A stretch of 38,846 nt of DNA from positions 1 to 38,846 of the forward strand of contig CALUYP010000066.1 in the NCBI GenBank assembly GCA_944325055.1. Direction: 5' to 3'. The translations under genes and the position numbers were made by a program. This DNA comes from an uncultured Elusimicrobiales bacterium. Lineage in GTDB: Bacteria; Elusimicrobiota; Elusimicrobia; Elusimicrobiales; Elusimicrobiaceae. Below, piece by piece: positions 9,907 through 17,279 of the stretch. The notes under the pieces were generated by a model. The model made no database searches. It had not been told where the DNA came from and was given only the letters and a program-made list of their open reading frames with translations. Positions within the stretch are counted from its first letter, which is position 1. Each line of letters starts with the position of its first letter.

Positions 9907-11043
9907 GTGAAAACATTTTTAAAAATATTGATTCTATTGGTTGTATTGGTTGGGATTTATGGGTTTGTTTTTTATAAGACGCCTCAGCAGCGTACTTTTG
10001 AAAAAACGCTTGCGGCGGCGCAAGCGGGAGACATGCAGGCGGCTTTTAATGTGGCGGGTTTCTATGCGAAAGGGACGGGTTTGCCTGCGCCGGATGGACA
10101 GCAAGCCGCCGCATGGTATCGCAAATCGGCGGCGGATGGGAATATGCAAGCCGCCCGCGAATTGGCGTATTTATATATTCAAGGAAAGGTGTTGCCTCAA
10201 AATTTGGAAGAAGCGGCTGTTTATTTGCAGCTTGCAGCCCAAGCGTCAGATGCCGCTTCACAACTGGAATTAGCTCGTTTTTATGCCGAGGGTTTAGGAG
10301 GGCTGCCCGTCCATCCACGAGAAGCGCTGTATTGGCAAATGAAAGCGGCGGAGCAAGGAAATGAATTCGCCCGCCAGATCATACAAACCAAACAACAGGA
10401 AGATCCTCTGCTGTATGAGGAAGTGAGCCGTTTTAACATTCTTTTGGAGAAAGCGGATGAAGGGGACGCGCAGGCCCAATTGGAAGCAGGGCAAGGCTTT
10501 CATAACGGATATCCGCGCGCCCGTAATGATGAGGAGGCGTTTCGTCTATTTACACAGGCTTGGGAGAGCGGGCAACTCCCTCAGGCTGCGTATGAATTAT
10601 CCCAACTCTATCAAAAAGGTGAAGGAACGGAAAAAAATGAAATCAAGGCGATGGACTTGTTAACCTCTGCGGTGCAGTCGCAAAACCCTGATGCCCAATA
10701 TATGTTCGGTACATTTGCGTATGGAGCCAATCCTCCTAAATACGAGGATGCTTTTGCTTGGTTTTCTAATGCCGCGGCGGCGGGACAGGCTCCAGGACAA
10801 TATATGACGGGATTCATGCTTATGCAGGGGCAGGGAACTCCAAAATCTGTTCCGCTGGCGATAGAGTTTTTCCGCAAAGCCGCCGAGCAAAACCATGTGG
10901 CGGCGCAATATGTTTTAGGGCAGATTTATTGGAAAGGCTTGGGGGTTGCCGTGGATAAACAAGAAGGAGAAAAATGGCTGCGCCGCGCGGCGGAAGGCGG
11001 TAATGAGGCGGCAAAAAATTTATTGGCTGAAAAGAGTTCTTAA
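9907..11043 (+). CDS. Sel1-like repeat (SLR/TPR) protein with N-terminal membrane anchor
   Basis: 378 residues from a GTG start with GAGAGGA upstream. A hydrophobic signal-anchor (about 5-24) precedes roughly eight Sel1-type repeats of 36 residues. The repeats show the alternating A-x-x-x-L-(A/G)-x-x-Y-x-x-G-x-G and A-x-x-W-x-x-x-A-A-x-x-G pattern. Such alpha/alpha solenoids mediate protein-protein contacts in the envelope. No enzymatic motif is present. It converges on the protease operon, with only 3 bases between the two stop codons. Confidence 0.85.
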   Translation: MKTFLKILILLVVLVGIYGFVFYKTPQQRTFEKTLAAAQAGDMQAAFNVAGFYAKGTGLPAPDGQQAAAWYRKSAADGNMQAARELAYLYIQGKVLPQNLEEAAVYLQLAAQASDAASQLELARFYAEGLGGLPVHPREALYWQMKAAEQGNEFARQIIQTKQQEDPLLYEEVSRFNILLEKADEGDAQAQLEAGQGFHNGYPRARNDEEAFRLFTQAWESGQLPQAAYELSQLYQKGEGTEKNEIKAMDLLTSAVQSQNPDAQYMFGTFAYGANPPKYEDAFAWFSNAAAAGQAPGQYMTGFMLMQGQGTPKSVPLAIEFFRKAAEQNHVAAQYVLGQIYWKGLGVAVDKQEGEKWLRRAAEGGNEAAKNLLAEKSS

Positions 11044-11046
11044 AAA

Positions 11047-12291
11047 TTAGATGTTGCCGAAAAAATTTTTAAGGCGCTGGAAATAATTTTGTGGTTTATT
11101 GATCCAGGAACCGTTTATTTTTTTTAAGACAATCGTCCGGACCTGTATACCGGAACTTGATTCGGCTGGTTTTATAGACGGATTCTTAAAAAGCGAAATT
11201 TCTATTTCATCGGCTTTTTCTAAGGGCAAAAGATTTTCTAAGTGGTTATAATCGACTTCTACTTCTTTGCGCCACGGAAGAAAAGTACGTAGATGTGTTC
11301 CGCTTCTTTTTAATTTGATGGAATGGATATATTCATTAATATTGATTTTTCCAATAATTTTTCCGTTCACTACCAAGTTGCGTTCTTTGATGCCATGATT
11401 ATGTACCGCTTCCAGTAAATCGTTTAAAAAAGAAACAGGCACAACATAGCTTTCTTTTTTAAATGCAGAACTTCCGCAGTGAATGCCTACTAATTCATTG
11501 TGTTCATTTATTACAGGTCCTCCGCAAGCGCCATCGCGGTTTAGATTGCCGAATTCAAAAGAAGTAATAATTCTGCCCGGCGTGGAAACTAAAACGCGGC
11601 GGTTGCGGACAATATGATATCCGTTATCAAAAAAACCGTACGAACGCAGAGCCTCTCCAATTTGAGGGACCGTTTTGGCCAAAGGAATCGGACGAATGGA
11701 AGAAGGCAATTCTTCTTCTGCCTTTAATAAAGCGACATCTCCCATCCCCGCCGTTCCTACGGCAACAACCGATACCGGAATTTCAACGGGAAACTTGTCG
11801 TCCATAAACAAGCGGATGAATAAATTCGATTCGCCTAAATCGTCTATAATATGCGCGGCTGTCACAATCCAGGTAGCTTTTTGCCCTTCGTAGGTTTCTT
11901 CTATAAAAAAAGCAGTAGCCGAAAAGAAAGAGCCATAAGCTTCTAATATTGGATTTTGTAAATTAACGGTTGTCCGTAAAGAAAGAGCGTCAAAAGCAGC
12001 GGCCTTTTGGAGTTTTTGTTGTGCGCGGATATCTGTTGACAACGCTTTTTCTTTTAGTTCCCGTAAAATTTCTTCCTCTTTAAGAACAGGGTTGATTCTT
12101 GGCAAAGAAGCAGGAATCCCCCCATTCCAAAAAGAAATTTCTCCAGGCAAAAGAGGGACTTTTGAAGGAATGGATACAGCCGGTTTTTTTATGGCGGTAC
12201 GCAACACAGAAAGAGGATTCTTTTTGGCCCATGCATTTGGGCAAGCCACCATTAAAACAATGAAAGATAAAAAGCAAAATAAGTGTTTCAT
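11047..12291 (-). CDS. Secreted chymotrypsin-fold protease with Cys nucleophile (array member 1)
   Basis: 414 residues from the ATG at 12291, chosen because it begins a clear signal peptide (MKHLFCFLSF..., cleavage near AWA-KK) and lies one base after the stop of the preceding paralogue. The trypsin-like triad can be placed at His147 (TAAHIID), Asp185 (GDVALL) and, where GDSGGP is expected, Cys256 in GACGGP. A Cys here is the pattern of PA-clan cysteine proteases such as viral 3C enzymes. After the protease domain (about 115-300) comes a C-terminal domain (about 305-368) shared with the two neighbours: IGKININEYIHSI, then DYNHLE. It is the last gene of a three-gene minus-strand operon. Substrate unknown; activity not proven by sequence. 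Confidence 0.82.
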   Translation of the reverse strand: MKHLFCFLSFIVLMVACPNAWAKKNPLSVLRTAIKKPAVSIPSKVPLLPGEISFWNGGIPASLPRINPVLKEEEILRELKEKALSTDIRAQQKLQKAAAFDALSLRTTVNLQNPILEAYGSFFSATAFFIEETYEGQKATWIVTAAHIIDDLGESNLFIRLFMDDKFPVEIPVSVVAVGTAGMGDVALLKAEEELPSSIRPIPLAKTVPQIGEALRSYGFFDNGYHIVRNRRVLVSTPGRIITSFEFGNLNRDGACGGPVINEHNELVGIHCGSSAFKKESYVVPVSFLNDLLEAVHNHGIKERNLVVNGKIIGKININEYIHSIKLKRSGTHLRTFLPWRKEVEVDYNHLENLLPLEKADEIEISLFKNPSIKPAESSSGIQVRTIVLKKINGSWINKPQNYFQRLKNFFGNI

Positions 12292-12292
12292 T

Positions 12293-13450
12293 TTATTTTT
12301 CCATCCTGGATACTTTATTGGTTTCCACATTAAATTCGTAGATAAAAGTTTGGCGTTTAGCAGAAGATCGATCTCCTTTTTGTACCGTTATACGGATGAT
12401 GTCTTGAGGCTCAATTTCCAAAAAGCGTTCCAAATGGGCGTAATCCATAAAGGGATAGGCGTAAAGCGTGTTATATAACCGGCCATGACGGATTTGTTGA
12501 ATGGAATGAATGTTTTCATCTGGATGTAAAATACCTAAAGGAGTATCAAAAATGCTGAAAACAACTCCGCCGGATTTTCCTGTTTGTTCCTGCTGCAGCA
12601 ATTCATATACCCAGCTTATGGGTACAATATGGGCAAACGAGTGGATAGACCTTTTGAAATAAGGCGAAATGAGTTGATACCAGTCGGTGGCTTGGACGGA
12701 TTCCGCTTGGGAAATTCCTACAAATACGCCAATTACTTTTCCATCTTTGATAAGCGGAGAACCACAATAGCCGCTTCGGACGGGAAAATCTTTATACCTG
12801 GCTAAAATGCGGTGCTGGCTGGAGAAAAGCACTTTAATATCAGCAAACCATCCAAAAATTCCCTGTGAAAACCCGGCGGATTGTATCGATTGGTTCGCTT
12901 CTGGCAATTGGGTCTCTATTTTTAATGGTTTTATATAAGCCAACACCTGTTTAGGCAGTCGGAAAACGGCGATATCTGCTCCATGAACATTACCTTCTCT
13001 TGCGGAATAAACCTGAAAAAAAATGGATTTTCCGGATTCATCTTGCACAGACAGGAAGGGAGATCTTCCAATGTCATCAAATATATGCCGTGCCGTAACA
13101 CCCCAAATTTCCCCGTCTACTTCAATGGCAAAAGCAGATCCTTTTCCATGAGTACGGGGATTATGTTGCAAGGTAAAAACAGCCGATTTGATCTTTTCTG
13201 GTGCAGGCCTCAGCGGGCGCATTATTGTTGGATGGCCCGAAACAAACAAGGGGGATACGGAGGAAAAGGCTGCTTCATTAGCAATTCGAGAGAGCATCTT
13301 CCATTTCAAGAAAGATTCTAGCGGCGCAATTTCGTTTTTTTGCAACAAGGAACGAACTAACTTTTCCCATTTATTTTGGGCATAAAGAGGTTCGGCCACA
13401 TAAGCAGTCAACCCAAACAGTATTATTATTCCCAATATCCACTTACGCAT
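12293..13450 (-). CDS. Secreted chymotrypsin-fold protease with Cys nucleophile (array member 2)
   Basis: 385 residues with an N-terminal signal peptide (cleavage near LYAQ). The triad positions are His122 (TARHIFDD), Asp159 (GADIAVF) and Cys229 in SGYCGSP, again Cys where trypsin-like enzymes have Ser. The C-terminal domain (296-357) repeats the array pattern: LGILHPDENIHSI, then DYAHLE. It lies 2 bases after the stop of array member 3 and 1 base before member 1. Paralogous to both by motif order and length, though sequence divergence is large. Confidence 0.82.
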   Translation of the reverse strand: MRKWILGIIILFGLTAYVAEPLYAQNKWEKLVRSLLQKNEIAPLESFLKWKMLSRIANEAAFSSVSPLFVSGHPTIMRPLRPAPEKIKSAVFTLQHNPRTHGKGSAFAIEVDGEIWGVTARHIFDDIGRSPFLSVQDESGKSIFFQVYSAREGNVHGADIAVFRLPKQVLAYIKPLKIETQLPEANQSIQSAGFSQGIFGWFADIKVLFSSQHRILARYKDFPVRSGYCGSPLIKDGKVIGVFVGISQAESVQATDWYQLISPYFKRSIHSFAHIVPISWVYELLQQEQTGKSGGVVFSIFDTPLGILHPDENIHSIQQIRHGRLYNTLYAYPFMDYAHLERFLEIEPQDIIRITVQKGDRSSAKRQTFIYEFNVETNKVSRMEK

Positions 13451-13452
13451 AT

Positions 13453-14610
13453 TTATTTTTTCTTATGAGATATTTTTGTTGCGCTATGCGTATGTAAATT
13501 TGCGAAGTAAGTATATTTGTTTGTACAAACGCGTACGCAAACGGCATTTTTTGTTAAAAACCATTTTTCCAGATGCATTAAATCGGTATGTCTCAGCAGG
13601 GTAGATTGATCGGTGGAAAGATGGGAGGCGCGTCCTTTCTCATAATATACAGATATTTGTATAATTTTCTCGTCTATTCCTAATCTTCCGATCTGAATTC
13701 CGTTAAACACCATAATTCTGCTTCCCGTGCCGGGCTGTTTGTATTCCCGCAACAAATCTTTTATATGCGATGTGGGAAAAAAGAAATGGGCTTGAAACGG
13801 ACGTTCAGAAGGAAGGGCTTTAAGGTGCAGAGGGAAACGGTATTCGCTTACCAGAGCGGTGGCTTCTCCCCTTTTATTAAGGATAATTCCACTATACAAA
13901 TTACTGGGAGAATCGGGAGAAAAAATTAAATCCAATTCCGGGCGTCTCCCCAAATTTTTTTGTTGAATATGTCCCACCATTTTTACCAGTTTGCCTTTGT
14001 CAAACCCATAAGAGAAAAAGAGATCCCCAGGCTGCATTGCTTCCTCGGCAAGCGGCAGCGGACGAGCAAATTCTGCAATTTGAGGGGGAAGTTTTACTAA
14101 AAAAGCGTCTGCTCCTTTTATGACTACTTCTGCCGGATAACTGTATTTTTGTTTTCCTACGTGGAAAGACACTTCAATTATATTTCCTTCCACAAATATA
14201 TGAGGAAAAATTACACCCCACAAAACGGTTTTTCCGCCCGTGTTTTCCGCCACGACAAATCCGGTTCCTAAATTTGCTGGATTTTTCCCCGGTACAGAGG
14301 CTGTAAAAAGGAAATGATGTATATAGTTTTCAAATGGAAGCAGCGCATACGGATTTTTTTGCGAAATTCTACTATTGGCAATAATTTTCTGTGCAATATC
14401 TTGGGCTGCCGCTGGCGGAAGAGCCTTGATCGGGAGGCCGTTATTATGCGAAAAATAAAATGGCATTTTATTTTTTTGTACAAAAAAAGAAGAAAACTCT
14501 TTTCCATTGGTTAAATTTTTTATAACTTTTATCCAATTCTTCTGAGCTTGTATTTCCGCAGGCAATGCTAGGAAGAGTAGTATAAAAATGAAAATCCAAT
14601 TTTTTCTCAT
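13453..14610 (-). CDS. Secreted chymotrypsin-fold protease-like protein (array member 3, degenerate active site)
   Basis: 385 residues from the ATG at 14610, chosen because it starts a signal peptide (MRKNWIFIFI..., cleavage near IQAQ). A longer form from 14664 would bury that signal and has no ribosome-binding site. His137 (IFPHIF) and Asp168 (GADAFLV) match the triad of the neighbours. The nucleophile region reads NLYSGIIL: aligned on Tyr-x-Gly, the Cys becomes Ser240 and the Gly/Pro residues of the oxyanion turn are lost. It may be inactive. The shared C-terminal domain (299-362) is kept: IGRLGIDEKI, then DLMHLE. It is the first gene of the operon. Confidence 0.75.
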   Translation of the reverse strand: MRKNWIFIFILLFLALPAEIQAQKNWIKVIKNLTNGKEFSSFFVQKNKMPFYFSHNNGLPIKALPPAAAQDIAQKIIANSRISQKNPYALLPFENYIHHFLFTASVPGKNPANLGTGFVVAENTGGKTVLWGVIFPHIFVEGNIIEVSFHVGKQKYSYPAEVVIKGADAFLVKLPPQIAEFARPLPLAEEAMQPGDLFFSYGFDKGKLVKMVGHIQQKNLGRRPELDLIFSPDSPSNLYSGIILNKRGEATALVSEYRFPLHLKALPSERPFQAHFFFPTSHIKDLLREYKQPGTGSRIMVFNGIQIGRLGIDEKIIQISVYYEKGRASHLSTDQSTLLRHTDLMHLEKWFLTKNAVCVRVCTNKYTYFANLHTHSATKISHKKK

Positions 14611-14808: not shown

Positions 14809-16056
14809 TTATTGTAGATGCGGGTAAAGAGGAAACTTTTGCAAGAACAATTTTACCTTGGCGGCGATTTCCGCTAAATAGGTGTCATCTTGGGCATGAG
14901 AAATCGCTTCATCAATAAACGAAGCGACTTGTTCCATATCCGCTTCTTTCATTCCGCGTGTGGTAACGGCGGGCGTGCCTAAACGCAGACCGCTGGTTAC
15001 AAAAGGTTTTTCCGGATCAAAGGGAATGGTGTTTTTATTGGCGGTGATGCCGGCTTTGTCCAAAGCCGCCTCGGCGGCTTTGCCGGTAAGTCCTTTGGCG
15101 CGCAGATCGATACACATTACATGACAGTCGGTTCCGCCCGCCACTAAACGGTATCCGCGTGCGGTCAGTTGTTTGGCGAGTTCGGCGGCGTTTAATTTGA
15201 CCTGGTGCTGATACGCTTTGAATTCGGGTTTCAACGCTTCGCCGAAGCAAACGGCTTTTGCCGCAATCACATGCATCAAGGGGCCGCCCTGTGTGCCGGG
15301 GAAAACGGCTGAGTTAATGGCTTTTGCCAAGGATTCTTTACACAAAATAAGGCCACCGCGCGGCCCGCGCAAAGTTTTATGGGTGGTGGTGGTAACGATA
15401 TCGGCATAGGGGAACGGATTGGGATATTCTCCGGCGGCGATCAGGCCCGCGTAATGCGCTACGTCGCACGCTAAATAAGCGTTGCAGGAGTCTGCAATTT
15501 CGCGCAGTCTTTTCCAGTCGAAAATCCGGGAATAATTTGAAGCGCCTGCCAGAATCAGTTTCGGTTTGTGTTCCAGGGCGAGCTTCGCGGCTTGATCGTA
15601 ATCAATTTCTTCGCTATCAGGACGGACGTTCATCGCCACAATGTTGTAAAGTTTGCCGGAAAAATTCATCGGATGTCCGTGGGTTAAGTGTCCTCCGTGG
15701 GACAGATTCAACCCCAAAACGGTGTCTCCCGGTTGCAGCAGGGCCAAATATACCGCCATATTGGCCTGGGCGCCGGAATGCGGCTGGACGTTGGCATGCT
15801 CGGCATGGAAAAGTTGTTTGGCGCGGTCGATCGCCAGTTGTTCCACTTCATCTACAAATTCGCATCCGCCGTAATAGCGTTTTCCGGGGTATCCTTCGGC
15901 ATATTTATTGGTCAATACGGAACCTTGTGCTTGCATGACCGCTAAAGAAGTAAAATTTTCAGAGGCAATCAGCTCCAGTTTCTCACGCTGGCGGCTGAGT
16001 TCTTTCGCTACGGAAGCAAATACGGCGGGATCGGTTTTTTGTAAATCAGGGTACAT
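14809..16056 (-). CDS. glyA: Serine hydroxymethyltransferase
   Basis: 415 residues, normal length. Fold-type I PLP enzyme that interconverts serine and glycine with tetrahydrofolate and supplies one-carbon units. Visible landmarks are IASENF (30-35), the YPGKRYYGG loop, the His/Ser/Gly-rich cofactor-binding segments, [17 protein letters not shown] (198-214), and the PLP Schiff-base Lys227 in [14 protein letters not shown]. The ATG has a good AAGGAG ribosome-binding site. It is transcribed divergently from the deoxyhypusine-synthase-like gene and is followed by a strong hairpin. Confidence 0.97.
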
Positions 16057-16202: not shown

Positions 16203-17279
16203 ATGGCAAAACTTACCAAAAAAGACTTTCTCAAAGACACCATCAAACACATTGATCTGAAAAAATACAATGTCGTCCCCATGGTGGAAGCCTTTGGGAG
16301 CATGGCCTATGCGTCCCGCGAAGTGGCCAGAGCGAGCAAAATCTATAATATGATGTTGTCCGACAAAAAATGCTCCGTCATTTTGTGTATTGCAGGATCG
16401 CTCGTGTCCGCCGGGCTTAAGAAAGTCGTAGTAGATATGATTCAGAACAACATGGTGGATGCGATTGTTTCAAACGGCGCCAATATTGTAGACCAAGACT
16501 TCTTCGAAGCGTTGGGCTATAAACATTATATCGGCACTCCTTATAATGCCGACGACAATTTATTGCGCGATCTGCATATTGACCGTATCTACGACACCTA
16601 TATTGATGAAGACCAACTCAAAGAATGCGACGAAACCGTCCATAAAATCTGCAACGCGTTGGAACCCCGCCCGTATTCTTCCCGCGAATTTATCTGGGAA
16701 ATGGGTAAATGGTTGGAGAAAAAAGGCAAAGGCAAAGATTCTATCGTTTATAACGCTTATAAATACGGCGTACCGGTATTTGTTCCCGCTTTCTCGGACT
16801 GCTCGGCCGGTTTCGGCTTTGTGGCCCACCAAACAGAACACCCCGAATCCCACGTTTCTATTGACAGCGCCAAAGAGTTCTTAGAACTGACCAAAATCAA
16901 AATCAAAGCCAAAGAAACCGGGCTTATGATGTTCTCCGGCGGCGTGCCGAAAAACTTCGCGCAGGATACGGTGGTGGCCGCTGAAATTTTAGGAGCGGAT
17001 GCTCCGATGCACAAATATGCCGTACAGATTACCGTTGCCGACGTGCGCGACGGCGCATTGTCCGGCTCCACCCTCAAAGAAGCGTCCTCTTGGGGTAAAG
17101 TTTCCACCGCCTTGGAACAGATGGTGTATGGCGAATGCACGACGTTAATTCCGCTCATCATCGGTTACGGTTACCACAAAGGTGCATGGAAAAAACGCAA
17201 AGCGGCCAACTACGTCAAGTTCTTACAGGATGAAGACGCTAAAGTGGCGGCTTTGAAAGCGAAAAAAGCCAAAAAATAA
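16203..17279 (+). CDS. Deoxyhypusine synthase-family protein (possible homospermidine synthase-type polyamine enzyme)
   Basis: 358 residues, recognisable as a deoxyhypusine-synthase homologue. NAD-site segments such as CIAGSLVSAGLKKVVVDMI, IVSNGANIVDQDF and VPAFSDCSAGFG are visible. The conserved SGGVPKNF carries Lys250, equivalent to the aminobutyl-carrying Lys of eukaryotic enzymes (human Lys329). The closing DGALSGSTLKEASSWGK block is also present. In eukaryotes and archaea the enzyme modifies eIF5A/aIF5A, which bacteria lack. Known bacterial members make homospermidine or related polyamines by aminobutyl transfer, so that is the more plausible role. The tail is Lys/Ala-rich. The ATG has an AGAGGTG ribosome-binding site. 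The barrel protein gene follows 6 bases later. Confidence 0.85.
   Translation: MAKLTKKDFLKDTIKHIDLKKYNVVPMVEAFGSMAYASREVARASKIYNMMLSDKKCSVILCIAGSLVSAGLKKVVVDMIQNNMVDAIVSNGANIVDQDFFEALGYKHYIGTPYNADDNLLRDLHIDRIYDTYIDEDQLKECDETVHKICNALEPRPYSSREFIWEMGKWLEKKGKGKDSIVYNAYKYGVPVFVPAFSDCSAGFGFVAHQTEHPESHVSIDSAKEFLELTKIKIKAKETGLMMFSGGVPKNFAQDTVVAAEILGADAPMHKYAVQITVADVRDGALSGSTLKEASSWGKVSTALEQMVYGECTTLIPLIIGYGYHKGAWKKRKAANYVKFLQDEDAKVAALKAKKAKK

What the first reader, a model, noticed from the sequence alone, without database searches (positions are those of the whole stretch)
11047..14610. Tandem array of secreted chymotrypsin-fold proteases with Cys in place of the catalytic Ser
Three genes spaced by 1-2 bases encode signal peptides and trypsin-like folds. 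His and Asp of the triad are in place, but the nucleophile motif is GACGGP in one and SGYCGSP in another, the pattern of viral 3C-like cysteine proteases rather than bacterial S1 enzymes (GDSGGP). The third has NLYSGI, possibly Ser or inactive. Secreted bacterial PA-clan enzymes with Cys nucleophiles are unusual and, as far as I know, not functionally described in such an array.
Basis: partly seen in the sequence, partly recalled or inferred. Interest (0 to 1): 0.75.

Follow-up and report, generated by a model that had tools for sequence, protein, structure and literature searches.

The report
Bacterial trypsin-fold proteases using cysteine
A gut-type bacterium of the phylum Elusimicrobiota carries a conserved row of exported proteases built like trypsin but with a cysteine where the active serine should be, an arrangement otherwise catalogued only in RNA viruses; it belongs to a large, untested bacterial family whose members seem tuned to cut after different amino acids.

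Summary
Three minus-strand genes (14610-13453, 13450-12293, 12291-11047) are 1-2 bases apart, carry signal peptides and encode PA-clan (trypsin-fold) domains. The second and third transcribed keep His and Asp and have Cys at the nucleophile position.

They belong to a family that dominates one genus: 44 of 66 genomes of the window's genus, with 1-12 scored copies each. In 110 collected members, all 91 outside one clade have complete His-Asp-Cys. The domain descends from bacterial Trypsin_2/HtrA/V8 serine proteases, not viral 3C. The nucleophile and S1-pocket motif (GxCG...GxHxG) is nevertheless 3C/V8-like.

The array sits between glyA and a Sel1-repeat gene in 20 other species. Each array slot keeps its own S1 residue (His, Phe, Glu), suggesting a set of cysteine endopeptidases with different cleavage preferences.

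The gene with NLYSGI is a decayed member of the Glu slot. Tyr stands where its relatives have Cys, and this clade has lost Cys in 6 of 16 members, at least four times. It is probably a pseudoprotease.

In the paper consulted, every MEROPS PA-clan cysteine family is viral, so a bacterial family is a real variant of a known kind. Activity, substrate, specificity and final location are untested.

The parts
11047..12291 (-). P0001 (414 aa from M14): signal peptide, N-terminal helical region, PA-clan domain with His160, Asp198, Cys269 (numbering from ATG at 12330), S1-pocket His (GIHCGS), family-specific C-terminal beta domain. 'His slot' of the array.
   Evidence: Trypsin_2 2.1e-10; AlphaFold2 pLDDT mostly 93-98 over the protease domain
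12293..13450 (-). P0002 (385 aa): signal peptide, PA-clan domain with His122, an Asp (GADIAV) and Cys229 (the only Cys of the protein), S1 position Phe (GVFVG), C-terminal domain. 'Phe slot'.
   Evidence: 12 of 12 orthologues keep H-D-C and Phe
13453..14610 (-). P0003 (385 aa): same architecture, His and Asp kept, Cys replaced by Tyr (NLYSGI), S1 Glu replaced by Val; long branch. Probable pseudoprotease of the 'Glu slot'.
14809..16056 (-). glyA-like gene, conserved upstream neighbour of the array (not part of the family)
   Evidence: flanks the array in 20 other species
9907..11043 (+). Sel1/TPR-repeat secreted protein, convergent conserved neighbour (not part of the family)

Best explanation
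The array encodes exported endopeptidases of the chymotrypsin (PA) fold in which a Cys-His-Asp triad replaces Ser-His-Asp. They arose from a bacterial Trypsin_2 serine protease within Elusimicrobiota and then multiplied in one genus. Each slot holds a fixed, different residue at the S1-pocket position: His (expected to favour Glu/Gln at P1, as in V8 and 3C enzymes), Phe, or Glu (perhaps basic P1). A row of them would therefore give complementary cleavage of extracytoplasmic protein in an anaerobic compartment where a free thiol survives. The Glu-slot enzyme repeatedly loses its Cys and in this genome (13453-14610) is a pseudoprotease. Shown: homology, triad and Cys conservation, signal peptides, synteny, slot-specific S1 residues, repeated loss. 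Inferred: catalysis by Cys, P1 preferences, nutritional/processing role, compartment.
For: 103 of 110 members have Cys. His, Asp and Cys are all present in 91 of 91 members outside one clade. 60 of 103 Cys members have no other Cys in the protease and C-terminal region, so it is not a conserved disulphide half. The profile places Cys on the catalytic Ser of DEG2 and SplB. AlphaFold2 mean pLDDT is 86 and mostly 93-98 over the protease domain; top PDB folds are DegS/DegP and Rv3671c. S1 residue by slot: His 12/12, Phe 12/12, Glu in 11/16; His213 is common to Glu- and Gln-specific enzymes (PMC5508998). The glyA-array-Sel1 order holds in 20 further species. Signal peptides were called in 96 of 106. 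Cys loss is 6/16 in the Glu slot against 0/91 elsewhere, Fisher p 4e-6, not corrected for relatedness. One origin of Cys is not rejected, p-AU 0.23.
Against: No activity data. No coordinates, so Cys-His distance and oxyanion hole are unmeasured. The Thr/Ser at -5 from the nucleophile, typical of Glu/Gln-specific enzymes, is not conserved here, which weakens the P1 prediction. In other hydrolases, engineered Ser-to-Cys swaps usually destroy activity (PMC6642262), although natural 3C enzymes work. The C-terminal domain has no recognised fold, so substrate targeting is unknown.
Confidence: 0.72

Rival explanations
1. The proteins are non-catalytic: a degenerate trypsin fold that binds peptides or surfaces, the Cys being a remnant.
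For: Members without Cys do exist in the Glu slot (P0003 and five relatives), so the fold is kept without Cys. 14 of 16 Glu-slot members have Asn for Asp.
Against: Complete H-D-C in 91 of 91 other members while mean column identity is about 18%. His and Cys are lost together in several Glu-slot members, as expected if they work together.
Confidence: 0.13
2. The conserved Cys is structural or regulatory (disulphide, metal or lipid site) and catalysis is absent or uses another residue.
For: Exported proteins often form disulphides; P0001 has a second Cys (GIHC) near the active site, a column filled by Cys in 35 members.
Against: 60 of 103 Cys members have no partner Cys in the domain and P0002 has only one Cys. 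The Cys sits exactly at the nucleophile column.
Confidence: 0.07
3. The domain is a viral 3C-like cysteine protease acquired by horizontal transfer.
For: GxCG and GxHxG motifs; weak hits to Peptidase_C3 (6 of 96 members, best 4e-4) and 3C chains.
Against: 84 of 96 hit bacterial Trypsin_2. Best profile and fold hits are HtrA/Spl/V8. A related Ser paralogue sits in the same genus and family. No relative in phage records, and none found in the viral contig scans, which reach close relatives only.
Confidence: 0.03
4. Active cysteine proteases, but for periplasmic quality control or precursor processing (HtrA-like housekeeping) rather than degradation of food or host protein. This overlaps with the best explanation on mechanism and differs on role.
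For: HtrA-like chassis, signal peptides without a recognised outer-membrane export signal, fixed chromosomal locus.
Against: 22 of 66 genomes of the genus lack family hits, and copy number varies 1-12. Other trypsin-type genes, including Ser-type ones, exist separately in this genome.
Confidence: 0.3

Closest known systems
HtrA/Deg serine proteases (MEROPS S1C) and Pfam Trypsin_2
   Same: Fold, triad order, exported; best profile and fold hits
   Different: Nucleophile Cys not Ser; no PDZ domain found, instead a C-terminal beta domain without PDB match
Staphylococcal Spl proteases and V8 glutamyl endopeptidase (S1B)
   Same: Second barrel incl. GxH S1 motif; top hits of the second-barrel profile
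   Different: Cys nucleophile; extra C-terminal domain; Thr/Ser190 not conserved
Viral 3C/3C-like cysteine proteases (MEROPS C3, C30, C4)
   Same: Cys nucleophile in PA fold, GxCG and GxHxG motifs; predicted to work like them
   Different: Sequence closer to bacterial serine enzymes; cellular, exported, stand-alone genes in arrays
Single-copy Ser paralogue ISPSSSGSP (e.g. G000:C34, 284-codon frame)
   Same: Same genome and sister genus; related PA domain
   Different: Ser nucleophile, too short for the C-terminal domain, one copy

Membership tests
PA clan (chymotrypsin-fold peptidases) | Double beta-barrel fold | tested here: met
   AlphaFold2 model pLDDT mostly 93-98 over the domain; DegS protease domain TM(target) 0.73-0.76
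PA clan (chymotrypsin-fold peptidases) | His, Asp, nucleophile in that order | tested here: met
   P0001 and P0002 met; P0003 lacks the nucleophile
S1 serine peptidases (S1C HtrA / S1B V8) | Ser nucleophile | tested here: not met
   Cys in 103 of 110 members
S1C HtrA | PDZ domain(s) after the protease domain | tested here: not met
   No PDZ hit in Pfam scan; C-terminal domain model without confident PDB match
Viral C3/C30 cysteine proteases | Cys nucleophile with His, in PA fold | tested here: met
   (sequence level)
Viral C3/C30 cysteine proteases | Sequence descent: family-level profile match | tested here: not met
   Only 6 of 96 members reach Peptidase_C3 at E<=0.01, against 84 of 96 for Trypsin_2
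Glu/Gln-specific endopeptidases | S1 His213 | tested here: met
   His slot only (P0001); Phe in P0002, Val in P0003
Glu/Gln-specific endopeptidases | Thr/Ser190 | tested here: not met
   Position -5 from the nucleophile is Asn/Asp/Gln/Lys/Pro etc.; Arg is common at -4
Cysteine endopeptidase | Thiol-dependent proteolysis | not testable with these tools
   Needs biochemistry
Cysteine endopeptidase | Cys and His within bonding distance, oxyanion hole formed | not testable with these tools
   The structure tool returned confidence and secondary structure, no coordinates

The most novel reading that the evidence does not exclude
A cellular family of active PA-clan cysteine proteases that evolved independently of RNA viruses by a Ser-to-Cys switch in a bacterial HtrA/V8-type stock, then radiated into arrays with slot-fixed specificities and recurrent pseudoenzymes.
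Probability: 0.5. Interest if true: 0.75.

Novelty: new variant of a known kind. Interest (0 to 1): 0.6.

Why it matters
The PA-clan cysteine families of MEROPS were described in 2019 as all coming from positive-strand RNA viruses (PMC6524800). A bacterial family with the same triad, with a related Ser-type paralogue in the same genomes, would let the Ser-to-Cys switch be studied directly, including which accompanying changes make a thiol work where engineered swaps usually fail. The slot-specific S1 residues make a ready panel for linking pocket residue to cleavage preference.

Tried and rejected
Viral origin: no relatives in phage records; two viral contig scans found none, but those reach close relatives only. 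Plasmid-borne or mobile array: rejected, since synteny is fixed and the only plasmid hit is a Deinococcus enzyme annotated as an S1C serine protease. Defence system: PADLOC hits to RT-Protease_XI and Avs1b reflect the shared trypsin-like domain; neighbours are housekeeping. Ser as nucleophile in P0003: the one-clade alignment puts Tyr, not Ser, at the Cys column. C-terminal domain fold: Foldseek best E 0.81, no answer; sequence search E 0.76. A viral scan with the deep alignment failed for lack of conserved stretches. Promoter and terminator scans gave no more sites than shuffles. Literature searches for bacterial PA-clan cysteine proteases or for this family in Elusimicrobiota found none, in an open-access library only.

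Full report
OBSERVATION. The window (G000:C66, a 1.32-Mb genome in 81 contigs, 90% complete) has three minus-strand genes at 14610-13453 (P0003), 13450-12293 (P0002) and 12330-11047 (P0001). All three begin with a Sec-type signal peptide, with likely cleavage after IQA, LYA and AWA. P0001 passes Pfam's cut-off for Trypsin_2 and Trypsin. P0002 and P0003 do not, but are clear homologues of P0001.

FAMILY. A profile of the three found 7 copies in the own genome: this array, three more at C55 and one at C8. In the order, 48 of 149 genomes had hits, 44 of them among the 66 genomes of the window's genus, with 1-12 scored copies each. Related records are titled Elusimicrobiales/Elusimicrobia. I collected 110 distinct members, one of which is the Ser-type paralogue. 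At the nucleophile column 103 have Cys; 106 have His and 96 Asp (14 Asn). Among the most conserved columns are G267, C269, G270, H160 and G286 of P0001. Of the 103 Cys members, 60 have no other Cys from the start of the protease domain to the end, so a conserved disulphide cannot explain it.

ORIGIN. 84 of 96 members hit Trypsin_2, 6 of 96 the viral Peptidase_C3. The profile's best PDB matches include chloroplast DEG2 and HTRA1, with the family Cys on the catalytic Ser. The AlphaFold2 model of P0001 (mean pLDDT 86, mostly 93-98 over the domain) matches DegS/DegP best, protease domain TM(target) 0.73-0.76. A profile of the second barrel finds SplB, V8 and other glutamyl endopeptidases first, then arterivirus nsp4 and picornavirus 3C. 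A Ser paralogue (motif ISPSSSGSP, 255-284 codons) occurs in the window's genus and a sister genus. On the tree the Cys proteins can be one clade (p-AU 0.23 for all, 0.58 for stand-alone ones); this does not prove one origin. The simplest reading is one Ser-to-Cys switch in Elusimicrobiota.

SLOTS. In 20 other species the array lies between glyA and the Sel1-repeat gene, so the locus is ancestral and not mobile. The three window genes belong to three orthologue groups. The residue at the S1 position (chymotrypsin 213) is fixed by slot: His in P0001's group (12 of 12), Phe in P0002's (12 of 12), Glu in 11 of 16 of P0003's. His213 is common to Glu- and Gln-specific enzymes and matters for S1 geometry (PMC5508998). 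I therefore predict Glu/Gln preference for the His slot, with modest confidence because Thr/Ser190 is not conserved. For the Phe and Glu slots only a different preference can be predicted.

DECAY. P0003 has Tyr (TAT) where relatives have Cys (mostly TGC), Val for the S1 Glu, and an end branch of 1.26 against 0.30 and 0.48 for its neighbours. Its clade lost Cys in 6 of 16 members (Tyr, Ala, His, Gln, Asn, Ser), at least four times on the tree, often with loss of His; elsewhere 0 of 91. The Fisher p of 4e-6 ignores relatedness. The frames stay open and full-length, so a pseudoprotease role is possible, but simple relaxation is not excluded.

C-TERMINUS. A roughly 100-aa beta-rich domain follows the protease domain. 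In this genome a search with its profile finds exactly these 7 family members. It has no confident PDB relative by sequence or fold.

MECHANISM. Best reading: exported thiol endopeptidases with complementary cleavage preferences. Catalysis, substrates and whether they stay in the periplasm are inferred, not shown.

NOVELTY. MEROPS PA-clan cysteine families were all viral in a 2019 account (PMC6524800). My searches found no bacterial one, but covered open-access papers only, and I could not survey the nucleophile column across all bacteria. The genus is probably Ca. Avelusimicrobium (Elusimicrobiaceae), since it lies in the same family as a 1,643,562-bp single-contig genome (G067) that matches the size I recall for Elusimicrobium minutum Pei191; this rests on memory.

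Noticed in passing
G067:C1:728000-739663 (L159) and G068:C6:40000-55603 (L160): Giant open frames (3,968 and 5,734 codons) in a sister genus carry several tandem PA domains, most with Cys nucleophiles (GFCGSP, GYCGSA, GTCGSA); one also matches pseudomurein-binding repeats weakly.
   Followed up: partly
G297:C179:2532-3071 (L135): A 3,451-codon frame in a different family of the phylum also has a PA domain with Cys at the nucleophile (GGTCGAA), so the switch may be older or repeated.
   Followed up: no
G000:C55:17464-18648: One of the three members of the second array of this genome (near pyruvate kinase and GAPDH genes) is interrupted by an in-frame TGA: decay or assembly error.
   Followed up: no
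window 16203-17279: A 358-aa protein next to glyA, resembling deoxyhypusine synthase from memory, is 88-99% identical in the syntenic species, mostly 95-99%, above most of its neighbours.
   Followed up: no
alignment A2 members vs PADLOC: 54 of 96 members match PADLOC's RT-Protease_XI model at up to 1.7e-12: a trap for automated defence-system calls.
   Followed up: partly
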